Below are positions 3,404 to 26,166 of a stretch of 64,000 nt of DNA, piece after piece. Source of the stretch: Mesobacillus persicus (GTDB lineage: Bacteria > Bacillota > Bacilli > Bacillales > Cytobacillaceae). The notes below the pieces were generated by a model that made no database searches, was not told the origin of the DNA, and worked only from the letters and a program-made list of their open reading frames with translations. The translations under genes and the position numbers were made by a program. Within the stretch, counting starts at the first letter, position 1; each line of letters begins with the position of its first letter. The DNA lies in assembly GCF_900109925.1 (NCBI RefSeq), contig NZ_FOBW01000004.1, positions 124,001 to 188,000 of the forward strand. The letters are read 5' to 3'.

Positions 3404-3981
3404 CTTTTCCCCTTTAATGAAGAACTGTACAATACTTCATTATATTTTTTTCGACAAGAAATAACAACATCCAAGTGAAGATTGGGTAAGTTTTACATAA
3501 ACAAACTGAATTAATAACTGTTTTTTGAGGGAGTTAGGCATACCAAAAGTATTCGTAATGTAATTTAGCTTCATGTGAACCTCATGACGGATACACTGAG
3601 GGTCTTGCCTTCGTTTCGTGCTGCATGAACGCCTCATAGAGCACAAATTCTGGTCCTTCCCTGTGTTTTCGTGCTCCATGAACGCCTCATAGAGCACAAA
3701 TTCTGATCCTTCCCTTGTTTTCGTGCTCCATGAACGCTTCATAGAGCACAAACTCTGGTCCTTCCCCTGTTTTCGTGCTCCATGAACCCTTCATGGCTCA
3801 TTCTGGTTTTCGTGGTGCGAGTTTATGTATAAAAAAGAAGTTTTGCAGTTAAAATTTGTCTAATTTGTGAACGACTCCAAACAAAACTTAACAAAACTTG
3901 ACGATTTATGAAAATTGTCACACTCTTTTAACCGATTTTCGTTTATTTTAGTAATAGTTCGTTAAAGGTGGTGAAATTAAA
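3404..3981. other. 578-bp intergenic region between divergent rodA and tungstate operon
   Basis: The middle is filled by repeat array B (3563-3822). A 103-codon reverse reading frame here is simply the repeat read in frame and has no ribosome site, so it is not called. The right end is AT-rich (3840-3980) and must hold the tungstate-operon promoter, but no good -35/-10 pair was found. Confidence 0.7.
3563..3822. repeat. Tandem repeat array B (52/53-bp unit)
   Basis: Four clear units start at 3616, 3669, 3721 and 3773 (spacings 53, 52, 52). A degenerate unit lies 52 bp further left. Each unit has the inverted repeat GTGCTC...GAGCAC around CATGAACGCCTCAT, then a pyrimidine-rich half with TCCTTCCCTG. 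It lies between divergent genes. Confidence 0.9.
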
Positions 3982-4896
3982 ATGCAAGATAGCACATATA
4001 CGCCGGATGAGATTGCCGCTATGTTTAAGATTTCAAAGCATACTGTTTATGAGCTGATCAAACGAGGTGAATTGAACGCGTTTAAAGTTGGAAATAAAAT
4101 GCGGATTGAACAAGCAGAGTTGGACCGTTATAAACAGACGAAAGCCTCTAACGTAAAGGTTCATTCAGCATCTACATCAAATCAGGCATATACTTTAAAA
4201 CTTGCGGGTAGCCATGATTTTCTTGTTGAGTATCTAGTTAGGTATGCGGCGAATGAATCAGCTGGGCTTGCTATTCAACCCAGTTATATTGGTAGTCTTG
4301 AAGGATTGATGATGTTGTATCGTGGCAGCGCTGACATGGCAGCCATCCATCTTCTGGATCCTACTTCTCAAGAATATAATCTACCTTTTATTCGCCAATT
4401 ATTTGTTCATGAGCCAATCACTGTTATCCGATTAGCGTCGAGAGAACAAGGACTGATTGTCGCAAAGGGAAATCCCAAAAACATCACAACCGTAGAGGAC
4501 TTAGCTCGGAAGGATGTAACGATTGTAAATCGGCAAAAAGGGGCAGGTACTCGCTTCCTTCTCGACTCTTTTCTAGCGGACAAGGACATTAATCCTAACT
4601 CGATAAAGGGTTATGAAAATGAGGAATGGAACCACCTTGGTGCCGCATCCCATATCAGCCGTGGATCCGCTGATGTAGCATTCGGTATCAAATATGCAGC
4701 AAGTCAACTTGGACTCGATTTTATTCCTGTGACGAGTGAAAAATTTGACCTAGTATTTCGATGGACCGAAGAAAATAAGGCGGCACTAGAACATCTGCTA
4801 GACCTGATTCACTTCACTACTTTTAAGGATAGCATCTTACAGCTCGAGGGCTATGATGCAAGTGAACTTGGAAAAATTATTTTCGAACACAAATAA
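3982..4896 (+). CDS. HTH-PBP transcriptional regulator of the tungstate transport operon
   Basis: Predicted oxyanion-sensing regulator of 304 residues. Residues 6-42 (YTPDEIAAMFKISKHTVYEL onward) form an excisionase/MerR-like helix-turn-helix. The rest resembles the periplasmic-binding-protein-like domain (PBP_like) often fused to ModE-type or excisionase-type HTH in molybdate/tungstate regulators, with segments such as GSHDFLVEYL, NRQKGAGTRFLLD and GSADVAFGIKYAA. It is first in the tupABC operon, only 16 bases before tupA. Sensing of tungstate or molybdate by the PBP-like part is inferred from domain architecture and position. Confidence 0.85.
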   Translation: MQDSTYTPDEIAAMFKISKHTVYELIKRGELNAFKVGNKMRIEQAELDRYKQTKASNVKVHSASTSNQAYTLKLAGSHDFLVEYLVRYAANESAGLAIQPSYIGSLEGLMMLYRGSADMAAIHLLDPTSQEYNLPFIRQLFVHEPITVIRLASREQGLIVAKGNPKNITTVEDLARKDVTIVNRQKGAGTRFLLDSFLADKDINPNSIKGYENEEWNHLGAASHISRGSADVAFGIKYAASQLGLDFIPVTSEKFDLVFRWTEENKAALEHLLDLIHFTTFKDSILQLEGYDASELGKIIFEHK

Positions 4897-4912
4897 TGGA
4901 GGAAAAACAAAT

Positions 4913-5785
4913 ATGAAAAACAAATTACTATCCCTATCTTTTGTTTTATTTTTAGCTTTAATGACAGCTTGCTCCAGCTCTGACACGAACAATGCAGAAG
5001 AACCAGAAACAACAAATGAGCCAGAAACAACTGAAGTTGAGACGACTGATTTGATTCTTGCTACAACAACAAGTACCCAAGATAGCGGTTTACTAGATGT
5101 TTTAATTCCAATGTTTGAAGAAGAAAACCCCTATAATGTTAAGACAATCGCTGTTGGAACGGGACAGGCCCTTGAAATGGGTGTGAACGGTGAGGCAGAT
5201 ACCCTCCTTACCCATGCACCAGTTGCTGAAAAAGAACTTGTTGACAATGGAGATGTCCTAAACTATCAACAAGTGATGTACAATGACTTTGTTGTCGTCG
5301 GACCTTCTTCTGACCCTGCAGGCATTAAAGGATTATCTACAAATGAAGCTTTCACCAAGATCTTCGAGGCTGAATCTGTATTTGTTTCCCGAGGCGATGA
5401 CTCTGGTACCCATAAAAAGGAACTGTCATTATGGACAGCTGCTGACCTTGATCCCGCCGGAAACAGCGCTTATTTGGAAACAGGACAAGGAATGGGGAAT
5501 AGCTTACAAGTTGCCGCAGAGAAGCAAGGCTATATTTTAACTGACCGTGCTACTTATCTTGCGCAAAAAGACAATTTAGGAGAATTTGAGGTTCTTGTCG
5601 AGGGAGACGAAAATCTACTAAATATTTATCATGTTATGGAAGTAAATCCTGATAAAAATGATAAGATTAATGCTGAAGGTGCAAAAGCCTTTGTTGAGTT
5701 TATGGTTAGTGAGGAAGCATTCAAAACAATTTCCGAATTCGGAATGGAAGACTACGGTCAGCCACTATTCTTCTTATTTGAATAA
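4913..5785 (+). CDS. tupA: Tungstate ABC transporter substrate-binding lipoprotein TupA
   Basis: Binds tungstate outside the membrane for import by TupBC. An upstream in-frame ATG at 4853 lies inside the previous gene; the ATG at 4913 follows GGAGG and opens a lipoprotein signal with lipobox MTAC (Cys20), giving 290 residues. The mature part begins with the TupA-type oxyanion-binding segment ILATTTSTQDSGLLDVL. Later SRGDDSGTHKKEL and GQGMGNSLQVA match the family. TupA rather than ModA/WtpA is favoured by this TTTSTQDSGLLD signature and the TupB-like permease. Specificity for tungstate over molybdate is a family inference. Confidence 0.9.
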   Translation: MKNKLLSLSFVLFLALMTACSSSDTNNAEEPETTNEPETTEVETTDLILATTTSTQDSGLLDVLIPMFEEENPYNVKTIAVGTGQALEMGVNGEADTLLTHAPVAEKELVDNGDVLNYQQVMYNDFVVVGPSSDPAGIKGLSTNEAFTKIFEAESVFVSRGDDSGTHKKELSLWTAADLDPAGNSAYLETGQGMGNSLQVAAEKQGYILTDRATYLAQKDNLGEFEVLVEGDENLLNIYHVMEVNPDKNDKINAEGAKAFVEFMVSEEAFKTISEFGMEDYGQPLFFLFE

Positions 5786-22330: not shown

Positions 22331-22359
22331 ATAAAAAAGACCAGCGAATCGCTGGTCTT
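22331..22359 (-). terminator. tmRNA terminator
   Basis: Reverse strand: AAGACCAGCGA / TCGCTGGTCTT followed by TTTTAT, 20 bases after the mature 3' end. Confidence 0.88.
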
Positions 22360-22379: not shown

Positions 22380-23021
22380 TGGTGGAGACGGTGGGACGTG
22401 CACTTCCATGCTTTCGTCATGGCACTGACTATATCTTGAACCTGTTGTTCTCAGGTCCTCCGGCGTCTTATGCGAATCATATTTTTTACCTAATTTACCT
22501 AATAGGTAGAAATTCGCATCTTAGTACTACCATGAAGGCAGCCTATAAGTCGATACACGGCTGTTGGATTGCTCCACATACCGCTCGGCATTGCCTTATC
22601 ACTTCAATGAGCGACTTAGGTTTCACCGATAAAGCCGGATTTTCACTTGTATGTTGCCATACAAGGCGACTATTACTAATCGAACCCACGTCCAAAAGCA
22701 TCGGCACTTAAGCTTCTACGAGTGTAGTCGACATATTCGCATTTCGCTGAGCCTTTTGCCTGTCGACAGGCGGCCGGTCAGCTAGTCTGGTTATTCTCTT
22801 CCTTCTCCCTCAGACGGTGAGATCCGGCGTAGCCTACTAAGAGTGAGTCCGCTACCCTACCACATAGGCGATGGAGGGGCGAACAGCTATGCAGTTATTA
22901 CGCTGCGAAAGCTAAGTTGTTGTTAGTTTTGCCAGTTATAGGCGTTGACGTTTTAACGAGGCCGATCCCCTCGACTCGCAACCTAAGCTCGAACTACCCC
23001 TGTCGAATCCGTAGCGTCCCC
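22380..23021 (-). ncRNA. ssrA: tmRNA (ssrA) interrupted by a group I intron
   Basis: Transfer-messenger RNA that rescues stalled ribosomes with SmpB, whose gene is just upstream. Exon 1 is 23021 down to 22679 (343 nt); exon 2 is 22396 down to 22380 (17 nt) and ends in an encoded CCA. The acceptor stem GGGGACG pairs with CGTCTCC and the T stem GTGGG with CCCAC. The tag frame (22933 to 22901) reads GKTNNNLAFAA followed by TAA TAA. The exons joined give 360 nt, the usual length. Between them is a 282-nt group I intron within the T-loop. A TATATT box lies six bases before the 5' end. Confidence 0.95.
22397..22678 (-). mobile_element. Group I self-splicing intron in the tmRNA T-loop, no ORF
   Basis: The 5' exon ends in U and the intron ends in G, as required. 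P1 is clear: exon CGAU plus intron UA, a GUAA tetraloop, then UA-GUCG, with the U.G wobble exactly at the splice site. P2 is a perfect 8-bp stem CTTGTATG-GCAA-CATACAAG (22646-22665). Q-like AATCCAACAGCC, R-like CGACTTATAGG (22542-22552) and S AAGATATAGTC (22427-22437) are present, and R and S form P7. A peripheral stem ATGCGAAT / ATTCGCAT is seen. At 282 nt it is too short for a homing endonuclease. Confidence 0.93.
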
Positions 23022-23174
23022 ATATATAATATAGAACAGACGTTAGGATACTCGGTGTTGTTCCGAGCAAAAAGCTGTTTGCCACTCGTGGTGACAAGAC
23101 TTATTATAGCACACTGACGAAATGTTTCAACTGGAAATGATTATCCATTTCTACCAATCGCTCTTAATGATTAA

Positions 23175-23642
23175 TTACATCTTCTGACGATCCCGGAAAG
23201 CACGCTCAATCTCACGCTTTGCTTCCTTCTTCTTCAGGTCTTCACGCTTATCGTATTTCTTTTTACCCCTAGCGAGCCCGAGTAAAACCTTTGCATAGCC
23301 ATTTTTCAAATAAACCTTTAACGGCACAAGCGCATAACCTGTTTCCTTCGTCTCGCCAATCAGTTTATTGATCTCTCGACGATGAAGTAAAAGCTTACGT
23401 TCCCGGAGTGGATCATGATTATAGCGGTTCCCCTGTTCATATGGACTCACATGCATCCCATATAAAAACACTTCGCCATTTTGCACTCGTGCATACGAAT
23501 CTTTAAGATTCACACGACCAGCACGAATCGACTTGATTTCAGTCCCTTGAAGAACGATTCCCGTTTCAAAGGTCTCTTCAACAAAATAATCATGGTAGGC
23601 TTTTTTATTCTGCGCTACCGTTTTGCCAGCACCTTTAGGCAT
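23175..23642 (-). CDS. smpB: SsrA-binding protein SmpB
   Basis: Binds the tRNA-like domain of tmRNA and delivers it to stalled ribosomes. It has 155 residues, the usual length. The N-terminus [20 protein letters not shown] and the segments [18 protein letters not shown] and [20 protein letters not shown] are characteristic, and the C-terminal tail is basic. It lies directly upstream of ssrA and downstream of rnr, the standard Bacillus order. Confidence 0.97.
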
Positions 23643-23766: not shown

Positions 23767-26103
23767 TTAGCGTCTCTTCGGCTTCCGTTTCGCTTTTGGT
23801 GCGTTTTCAAAGAACTTCTTATTTTTCTTCCCCTTTTTCCTTGAGCCACCTTCACCAGAACTTTTGCCCTTAGGAGTGTCTCCAGCTTTCCCGTTTCGTG
23901 GCTTCCTTTCACTACTTCCCGTTTTAAATACTTTTGGCGTCTCTGTGCGCTCGCGGCGTGTCCCTTTCATGCCGACGATTTCAAAGTCAATAGAACGCTC
24001 ATCTTTGTTAACTTTGACGACACGGACAGTTATTTCGTCACCAATGCGGAAGACATTACCTGTACGTTCCCCAATCATCGCGAATTGACGGTCATCAAAA
24101 CGGTAGTAATCATCCGTCATATAGCTAACATGAACGAGGCCTTCAATCGTGTTAGGAAGTTCTACGAACATTCCAAAGTTCGTAACCGAACTGATAATTC
24201 CATCGTACTCGACACCAATTTTATCTTCCATATATTCCGCTTTTTTGAGTTCATCTGTTTCACGTTCCGCTTCCACTGAACGTCGTTCCATATCAGACGA
24301 GTGCTTAGCGATTTCCGGTAACTGAGATCCCCACTTTGCTCTTGTTGACTGGTCAAGTTTCCCTTCAATTAGATAGGTTCTAATTAATCGGTGTACAACC
24401 GTGTCAGGGTAGCGGCGGATTGGTGAAGTGAAGTGGGTATAAAACTCTGTTGATAAGCCATAATGTCCTAGGCTTTCCTCAAAATACTTCGCCTTCTGCA
24501 TCGAACGGAGCATCACAGTGGACACAACCATTTCCTCTGGCTTTCCTTGAACCTCTTCGATAATCTCCTGTAATGCACGCGGGTGAACAGAGTTTGCCGT
24601 CCCTTTTACAATGTAGCCAAAGTTTGTAATAAACTCAAAGAATTTGCGAAGCTTGTCTTCCTTCGGATCCTCGTGGATACGGTAAATAAACGGAACTTCC
24701 ATCCAATGGAAATGCTCTGCAACAGTTTCGTTGGCAGCAAGCATAAATTCCTCAATTAATTTCTCAGCTACCGAACGCTCACGCAAAACAACATCAGATG
24801 GATGGCCATCTTCATCGACTAGCACTTTTGACTCCTTAAAATCAAAATCAATTGCTCCTCGATCCATCCGTTTCTTGCGAAGGATAGCCGCCAAATCTTC
24901 CATCATCTCAAACATCGGAACAAGTGGTTCATAGCGTTTTCTTACTTCTTCATCTTTATCAACTAAAATTAAATTCACATCGTGGTAGGTCATTCGTTCT
25001 GTCGTTTTGATAACACTTTGGAAAATCTCATGGTCCACTACTTCACCATCAGGAGAAATTTCCATCGTACAGCTTAGCGTAAGACGGTTCACCTTTGGAT
25101 TTAACGAACAAATCCCATTGGACAATCGATGTGGGATCATCGGAATCACTCGGTCCACTAGGTAAATACTTGTTGCCCGTTCTTCTGCTTCAAGGTCAAT
25201 TGGTGAACCTTCTTTAACATAATAACTAACGTCTGCGATATGAACGCCAAGTTTATAATTCCCGTTCTCAAGCTTTGTTACGGTGACCGCATCATCTAAA
25301 TCCTTTGCATCTGCTCCATCAATCGTTACAATGACCTCATCTCGTAAGTCACGGCGATTGGCAATTTCACTTTCATCGATTTCATCAGGAGTTTCATTTG
25401 CTTGCTGAATGACTTCTTCAGGAAACTCCATTGGTAATCCATGCTTATGAATAACAGACAAAATATCTACGCCAGGGTCATTTTTATGACCTAGGACAGA
25501 AATAACTGCACCTTCAGCGGATTTACGGCCGTCTGGATAACTCGTTAAAGTTACAACAACTTTGTGCCCTTCTACGGCACCAAGGCTGGCTTCCTTCGGA
25601 ATAAAAATATCACTAGTGAATTTTTTATCATCAGGTACAACAAAGCCAAAATGCTTGCTCTCAGTATATGTACCGACAATCTGCTGAACTCCTCGTTCAA
25701 CAATGCGGACAACCGTTCCCTCGCGACGCTGCCCGGAACTCTCTGTCGAAACACGAGCAAGAACAATATCGCCATGCATCGCGTTGTTCGTTTCATTTGG
25801 TGGGATAAAAATATCATCCATTCCTGGCTCTTCAGGAATTACAAAGGCAAATCCTTTTGCATGACCTGTCAGCTTACCACGGACAAGGTTCATTTTTTCC
25901 GGTAAACCGTAACGATTGCTGCGGGTCCGGACAACAAGTCCTTTTTCTTCCATGACAACAAGCGCTTTAACAAATTCCTTAAAGGTTGCCGAATCTTGAA
26001 TTCCAAAAGCTTCTTCTAGCTCTTGGACGGTTAGAGGTTTATAAGCCTCATCCTTCATATAATGAAGCAATCGATCAATATGGTCCTGTATGCTTTCTTC
26101 CAT
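23767..26103 (-). CDS. rnr: Ribonuclease R
   Basis: Processive 3'-5' exoribonuclease that degrades structured RNA and, with SmpB/tmRNA, non-stop mRNA. The 778-residue protein has an N-terminal helix-turn-helix/cold-shock region, the RNB catalytic domain with the acidic cluster [14 protein letters not shown], an S1 domain ([20 protein letters not shown]) and a very basic Lys/Arg tail. ATG 26103 follows AGGAGGG; the frame extends further upstream without a ribosome site. It is followed by smpB and ssrA. Confidence 0.97.
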
Positions 26104-26166
26104 ATGTAAATCCCTCCTTTTATTAATGGTTCGCATATATGTTAGTTGTCTCAACTCTACATATAT

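What the first reader, a model, noticed from the sequence alone, without database searches (positions are those of the whole stretch)
22397..22678. Group I intron splits the T-loop of the tmRNA gene
Seen: the tmRNA 5' part (from 23021) and its last 17 nt (22396-22380) are separated by 282 nt. P1 pairs exon CGAU with GUCG, with U.G at the cut and a GUAA tetraloop; P2 is 8 bp with a GCAA loop; R (22542-22552) and S (22427-22437) can form P7. Exon 1 ends in U and the intron in G. Joining the exons restores a 7-base T-loop and a 360-nt RNA. Ribosome rescue in this organism would thus depend on splicing of a tRNA-like domain. I recall group I introns being reported in a few bacterial tmRNAs; this instance may be new.
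Basis: partly seen in the sequence, partly recalled or inferred. Interest (0 to 1): 0.9.

Follow-up and report, generated by a model that had tools for sequence, protein, structure and literature searches.

The report
Self-splicing intron splits tmRNA gene
The bacterium's main gene for tmRNA, the RNA that frees stuck ribosomes, is interrupted by a small intron that very probably removes itself; this kind is already known from hundreds of bacteria, and here the same genome also keeps a second, uninterrupted tmRNA gene, so ribosome rescue need not depend on splicing.

Summary
The smpB-linked ssrA gene (minus strand, 23021-22380) is split by a 282-nt intron (22678-22397) after the sixth T-loop nucleotide. 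Joining the exons restores a 7-base T-loop and a 360-nt tmRNA that ARAGORN recognises; it misses the unspliced gene. Rfam's group I model matches (E 2.7e-6, below its gathering score). In 32 related introns, a named P1-P9 structure with the P7 pseudoknot pairs in 98.7% of cells, and 24 pairs show compensatory changes.

The kind is known: 883 intron-form tmRNAs in 21 phyla, most at this T-loop subsite; the Clostridium botulinum relative self-splices. By score, about half of this bacterial family's surveyed species carry the intron form.

The inference that ribosome rescue must depend on splicing is weakened. The genome has a second, intact tmRNA gene (G000:C28:488208-488572, tag GKQQNNFAFAA, 75% identical) between tRNA-Ser and 6S RNA. 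It belongs to a distinct clade seen in 20 of 193 family genomes. On the same contig lie a second RNase P RNA of a deeply separate clade and a second SRP RNA. This spare set of stable RNAs, unexplained and not found in the papers searched, is the more surprising lead. Expression and splicing were not testable.

The parts
22679..23021 (-). ssrA exon 1 (343 nt): tRNA-like 5' half, mRNA-like region, pseudoknots, T-stem 5' strand and first six T-loop bases (UUCGAU)
   Evidence: Rfam RF00023 155.5 bits; exon join gives an ARAGORN tmRNA
22397..22678 (-). group I intron, 282 nt, no homing endonuclease ORF; begins U, ends in omega-G
   Evidence: RF00028 E 2.7e-6; 32-sequence covariation
22380..22396 (-). 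ssrA exon 2 (17 nt): last T-loop base, T-stem 3' strand, acceptor 3' strand, CCA
22895..22933 (-). tag reading frame GKTNNNLAFAA with two stops
   Evidence: ARAGORN on joined exons, tmRNA positions 89-127
22667..22682 (-). P1: exon CGAU plus intron UA with UAGUCG, U.G at the 5' splice site, GUAA loop
   Evidence: five of six pairs invariant, including the U.G; the sixth is paired in 31 of 32
22646..22665 (-). P2, 8 bp with GCAA loop
   Evidence: four pairs with compensatory changes, 100% paired
22634..22639 (-). P3 5' strand (pairs with 22459-22464)
   Evidence: three pairs with compensatory changes, 100% paired
22459..22464 (-). P3 3' strand
22557..22629 (-). P4-P5-P5a-P6-P6a domain
   Evidence: 95-100% paired, compensatory changes in P5a, P6 and P6a
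22545..22551 (-). P7 5' strand (pairs with 22427-22432; guanosine-site helix, one bulged base)
   Evidence: all six pairs invariant in 32 introns, so present but not tested by covariation
22427..22432 (-). P7 3' strand
22470..22542 (-). P7.1 and P7.2 hairpins between P7 and P3, as in subgroup IA introns
   Evidence: 96.5-100% paired, six compensated pairs
22438..22458 (-). P8
   Evidence: three compensated pairs
22398..22425 (-). P9 and P9.0
   Evidence: 97.5-100% paired
23103..23130 (-). promoter-like site TTGAAA-16-TATAAT with TG before the -10
   Evidence: 11 of 12 matches; consensus scan only
22337..22359 (-). intrinsic-terminator-like hairpin followed by T run, 20 nt after ssrA
   Evidence: consensus scan
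23175..23642 (-). smpB, tmRNA's dedicated protein partner; single copy in the genome
   Evidence: PF01668 E 6.3e-65; genome search finds one
23767..26154 (-). rnr (ribonuclease R), upstream in the usual rnr-smpB-ssrA order
   Evidence: Pfam RNB E 1.1e-116

Best explanation
The smpB-linked ssrA gene carries a small group I ribozyme intron at the standard tmRNA T-loop site (between T-loop nucleotides 6 and 7). The precursor folds so that exon CGAU pairs with the intron's internal guide GUCG (P1). Guanosine bound at P7 attacks after the -1 U, then the freed exon attacks after the terminal G, joining UUCGAU to UCCCAC. The T-stem strands can pair in the precursor and may help hold the exons together. 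The product is a normal 360-nt tmRNA with tag GKTNNNLAFAA that works with the single SmpB. The same genome also has an uninterrupted tmRNA of another lineage in a tRNA-Ser/6S RNA cluster, so rescue is probably not strictly dependent on this splicing. Shown: sequence, structure, covariation, restored tmRNA, second gene. Inferred: catalysis, in-cell splicing, and expression of either gene.
For: RF00028 and RF00023 matches meet at the T-loop. Joined exons give a complete tmRNA, the unjoined do not. 32 homologous introns at the same site: 98.7% of cells paired, 24 compensated pairs, conserved P4/P7 and U.G/omega-G boundaries. The site equals T-loop subsite 7, the main one of the 883 known intron-form tmRNAs. 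The C. botulinum tmRNA intron was previously shown to self-splice and uses the same 5'-CGAU-3' as P1 substrate (PMC2729099). The intron-form score is the only tmRNA match in 85 of 168 single-copy family genomes, which would be hard to explain if such introns did not splice. Second intact tmRNA; single smpB.
Against: The Rfam group I score is below the curated gathering threshold (33.9 against 50), although relatives score similarly (37-42). P7 and P4 pairs are invariant or nearly so and therefore cannot be tested by covariation. No splicing or expression data exist for this organism.
Confidence: 0.94

Rival explanations
1. The smpB-linked gene is a decayed pseudogene whose intron no longer splices; the intact copy on C28 has taken over tmRNA function.
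For: A complete second tmRNA exists.
Against: Exons are 94-96% identical to those of three congeners with the same intron, the tag frame, T-arm and acceptor are intact, and the intron core is unchanged where 32 relatives are unchanged. A promoter-like site and a terminator-like hairpin flank the gene. In the congener G005 an intron form is the only tmRNA found above the E 1e-20 cut.
Confidence: 0.04
2. The intron is a regulatory switch: splicing is conditional, and the two tmRNA genes divide the work between conditions (for example growth and sporulation).
For: Two different tmRNAs with different tags and gene contexts; array-bearing genomes have the intron-form score more often than single-copy ones overall (17 of 20 against 85 of 168, Fisher p 0.004).
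Against: The association disappears within the best-sampled genus (12 of 15 against 31 of 45, p 0.52), so shared ancestry may explain it. No regulatory element was found in the intron.
Confidence: 0.1
3. The insertion is an assembly artefact or a chance insertion that only resembles a group I intron.
For: Draft genome of 40 contigs; sub-threshold Rfam score.
Against: Homologous introns at exactly the same position in many independent assemblies, including complete genomes, with strong covariation.
Confidence: 0.005

Closest known systems
Intron-form tmRNA genes (Williams 2002; PMC11915505)
   Same: Group I intron in the T-loop at subsite 7, -1 U paired to G in P1, omega-G, T-loop rebuilt by splicing, mostly Bacillota
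   Different: Nothing structural. Here a second uninterrupted tmRNA gene coexists; multiple tmRNA genes per genome are not mentioned under the terms searched in that paper
Clostridium botulinum tmRNA group I intron (PMC2729099)
   Same: Similar size (287 against 282 nt), same P1 substrate CGAU; [quoted passage not shown]
   Different: Different class of Bacillota; sequences not aligned here
Rfam RF00028 Intron_gpI
   Same: Full-length model match with P1 to P9
   Different: Score under the gathering threshold, probably because of the 79-nt P7.1/P7.2 insertion
Standard tmRNA of Bacillaceae (RF00023)
   Same: Spliced product has all parts, including the G3.U70 alanine signal and an AA-ending tag
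   Different: T-loop reads UUCGAUU after splicing where most intronless relatives have UUCGACU

Membership tests
Group I intron | P1 with conserved U.G at the 5' splice site | tested here: met
   U.G invariant in 32 sequences
Group I intron | 3'-terminal G of the intron | tested here: met
Group I intron | P3-P8 and P4-P6 domains with P3/P7 pseudoknot | tested here: met
   98.7% of cells paired, 24 compensated pairs; P7 itself invariant
Group I intron | Match to the Rfam Intron_gpI model | tested here: inconclusive
   33.9 bits, E 2.7e-6, below the gathering score of 50
Group I intron | Guanosine-dependent self-splicing | not testable with these tools
   needs RNA
tmRNA-type group I intron (T-loop subsite 7) | Insertion between T-loop nucleotides 6 and 7, restoring a 7-base loop | tested here: met
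   UUCGAU|U in the window and all intron-form relatives examined
Subgroup IA group I intron | P7.1/P7.2 hairpins between P7 and P3 | tested here: met
   both paired with compensatory changes; finer subgrouping not attempted
Mobile intron with homing endonuclease | Endonuclease ORF inside the intron | tested here: not met
   no intron-strand ORF of 60 aa or more; 32 homologous introns are 270-284 nt
tmRNA | tRNA-like domain, tag frame and mature ends | tested here: met
   RF00023, ARAGORN on joined exons
Sole tmRNA of the cell (dependence on splicing) | No other intact ssrA in the genome | tested here: not met
   G000:C28:488208-488572, 184 bits

The most novel reading that the evidence does not exclude
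This genome and many relatives carry a second, separately evolving set of stable housekeeping RNAs: a distinct tmRNA lineage, a deeply diverged second RNase P RNA, a second SRP RNA and an extra 6S RNA, grouped with tRNA-Ser(GCU) and other tRNAs. The set is functional and used under particular conditions or in a particular cell type, while the primary tmRNA is supplied through intron splicing.
Probability: 0.3. Interest if true: 0.7.

Novelty: new member of a known kind. Interest (0 to 1): 0.38.

Why it matters
The intron is one more case of a known kind. The survey adds that in this Bacillaceae-type family the intron-form score is the only tmRNA match in about half of the single-copy species, and the state switches repeatedly between close relatives, which makes the family a good system for studying gain and loss of an intron in a key RNA gene. 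The coexistence of a spliced and an unspliced tmRNA in one cell gives a natural strain in which splicing could be blocked and the consequence for ribosome rescue measured. The second set of stable RNAs, if expressed, would raise the question of why a bacterium keeps two sets.

Tried and rejected
Looked for a phage or plasmid source: the intron has no blastn match in the phage or plasmid collections, and a strict pattern for the second tmRNA is absent from viral contigs. blastn hits of the second tmRNA in phages and plasmids were few and 69-85% identical; the Priestia plasmid hit is an ordinary smpB-ssrA operon. Tested whether intronless ssrA alleles with T-loop U at the splice position are footprints of intron loss: 4 of 9 such alleles have an intron-bearing nearest neighbour against 15 of 50 with C, p 0.45, so not supported. 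Tested whether a second tmRNA goes with the intron: significant overall but not within the main genus. Literature search for a second set of stable RNAs found nothing relevant. Williams 2002 is not held.

Full report
Observation. On the minus strand the order is rnr, smpB, ssrA. Rfam finds tmRNA from 23013 to the T-loop and a group I intron model spanning 22687-22406. Taking exon 1 to 22679 and exon 2 from 22396 gives a 360-nt RNA with acceptor GGGGACG/CGUCUCC (G3.U70), T-arm GUGGG-UUCGAUU-CCCAC and CCA. ARAGORN recognises it as tmRNA with tag GKTNNNLAFAA only after joining.

Structure. The intron folds with z = -5.8. I aligned it with 31 introns from the smpB-linked ssrA of relatives and wrote down a full group I structure (P1, P2, P3, P4, P5/P5a, P6/P6a, P7, P7.1, P7.2, P8, P9, P9.0). 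On 32 distinct sequences 98.7% of cells pair, 24 pairs have changes on both sides and the covariation score is 0.138 against 0.02-0.05 for slid versions. P4 and P7, the catalytic core, are invariant or nearly so. Exon 1's GUGGG can pair with exon 2's CCCAC in the precursor fold; that this helps exon alignment is my inference.

What is known. A 2025 survey lists 883 unique intron-form tmRNAs, all in the T-loop, most at subsite 7, in 21 phyla and predominantly Bacillota (PMC11915505). The window's intron follows UUCGAU and so sits at subsite 7. The C. [quoted passage not shown] The finding is therefore a new member of a known kind.

Distribution. In 193 genomes of the window's family, 191 have tmRNA. 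The best scores of the 168 single-copy genomes fall into two separate groups, 85 intron-form and 83 uninterrupted; this split is by score and was checked directly only on a subset of loci. Within the window's genus, G000, G001, G003 and G005 have the intron; G002, G004 and G006 do not. On a tmRNA tree the intron state changes at least 8 times on well-supported branches and 17 times in all. Introns of the four congeners group together with moderate support (85/87), which fits one acquisition in the genus with later losses but does not prove it.

Second tmRNA. The same genome has another tmRNA at G000:C28:488208-488572: 184 bits, tag GKQQNNFAFAA, T-loop UUCGACU, no intron, 75% identical to the window's. 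It lies between tRNA-Ser(gct) and 6S RNA, followed by tRNA-Ala, -Ser and -Gln. There is only one smpB. Similar copies occur in 20 of the 193 family genomes and the 25 copies placed on the tree form one clade (SH-aLRT 100). A strict pattern finds it in only one of 288 sampled genomes from other families of the order. The acceptor keeps G3.U70 and the tag frame is kept, so it looks functional; expression is untested. This removes the firm basis for 'rescue depends on splicing' in this organism. The statement that 17 of the 20 array-bearing genomes also have an intron-form primary gene was seen in sequence for G000, G001, G003 and G036 and otherwise rests on scores.

A wider pattern. The second tmRNA lies close to extra copies of other stable RNAs: 6S in the window's genus, small SRP RNA in Neobacillus-type genomes, 6S plus large SRP in G209. 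The window's genome has a second RNase P RNA and second large SRP RNA 80 nt apart at C28:449819-450550, 38 kb from the second tmRNA. Second RNase P RNAs of ten genomes form a clade separated from the ten primary ones by about one substitution per site (100/100). Neighbouring genes are ordinary chromosomal ones, and in G036, G140 and G180 the copies are on chromosome-sized contigs. In G006 the tRNA-Ser - tmRNA - 6S - SRP order survives with a truncated tmRNA. I found no report of this set, but most subscription papers are not held. I do not know its function.

Verdict. The intron is real and almost certainly a functional group I intron of the known tmRNA type. The claim of dependence is unsupported for this organism. 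The spare set of stable RNAs deserves a separate look.

Noticed in passing
L009 10209-10573 (-), G000:C28:488208-488572: Second, uninterrupted tmRNA gene (tag GKQQNNFAFAA) between tRNA-Ser(gct) and 6S RNA, not linked to smpB; member of a separate tmRNA clade found in 20 of 193 family genomes, sometimes as two tandem or dispersed copies (L166, L181, L171/L172).
   Followed up: yes
L192 9819-10205 and 10285-10550 (+), G000:C28:449819-450550: Second RNase P RNA and second large SRP RNA 80 nt apart, 38 kb from the second tmRNA. Similar dyads in G001, G002, G003, G004, G005, G035, G141 and G209; the second RNase P RNAs form a deeply separate clade.
   Followed up: partly
L166, L167, L169, L171, L172, L173, L177, L180, L181, L188, L189: Neobacillus-type arrays tRNA-Ser(gct) - tmRNA - tRNA-Asn/Thr/Lys - small (85-nt) SRP RNA, although the same genomes have a normal large SRP RNA elsewhere; a second RNase P RNA lies within about 3 kb in L172, L173, L188 and L189.
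   Followed up: partly
L198 9830-10633 (-): In congener G006 the array survives as tRNA-Ser - truncated tmRNA running into 6S RNA - large SRP RNA: a decaying second tmRNA.
   Followed up: partly
L166-L181 second tmRNAs, and L051, L055, L065, L080, L091, L115 intron-form ssrA: Several tmRNA genes end CCACTA, CCACTT or CCATAT instead of CCACCA, so the CCA end would have to be added after transcription.
   Followed up: no
L066 about 3784-4145 and 4894-5255: Peribacillus huizhouensis has two complete uninterrupted tmRNA genes in tandem beside smpB.
   Followed up: no
L164 5072-5426 and L165 5051-5405 (G062): Two extra 355-nt tmRNAs with shortened tags GKQNQLLAA and GNQKQLLAA, besides a standard one; context not studied.
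   Followed up: no
smpB-linked ssrA loci L040-L119: The T-loop base at the splice position is U in all intron-bearing genes but mostly C in intronless relatives (35 of 42 with C in the checked set); whether U marks past intron loss could not be shown.
   Followed up: partly
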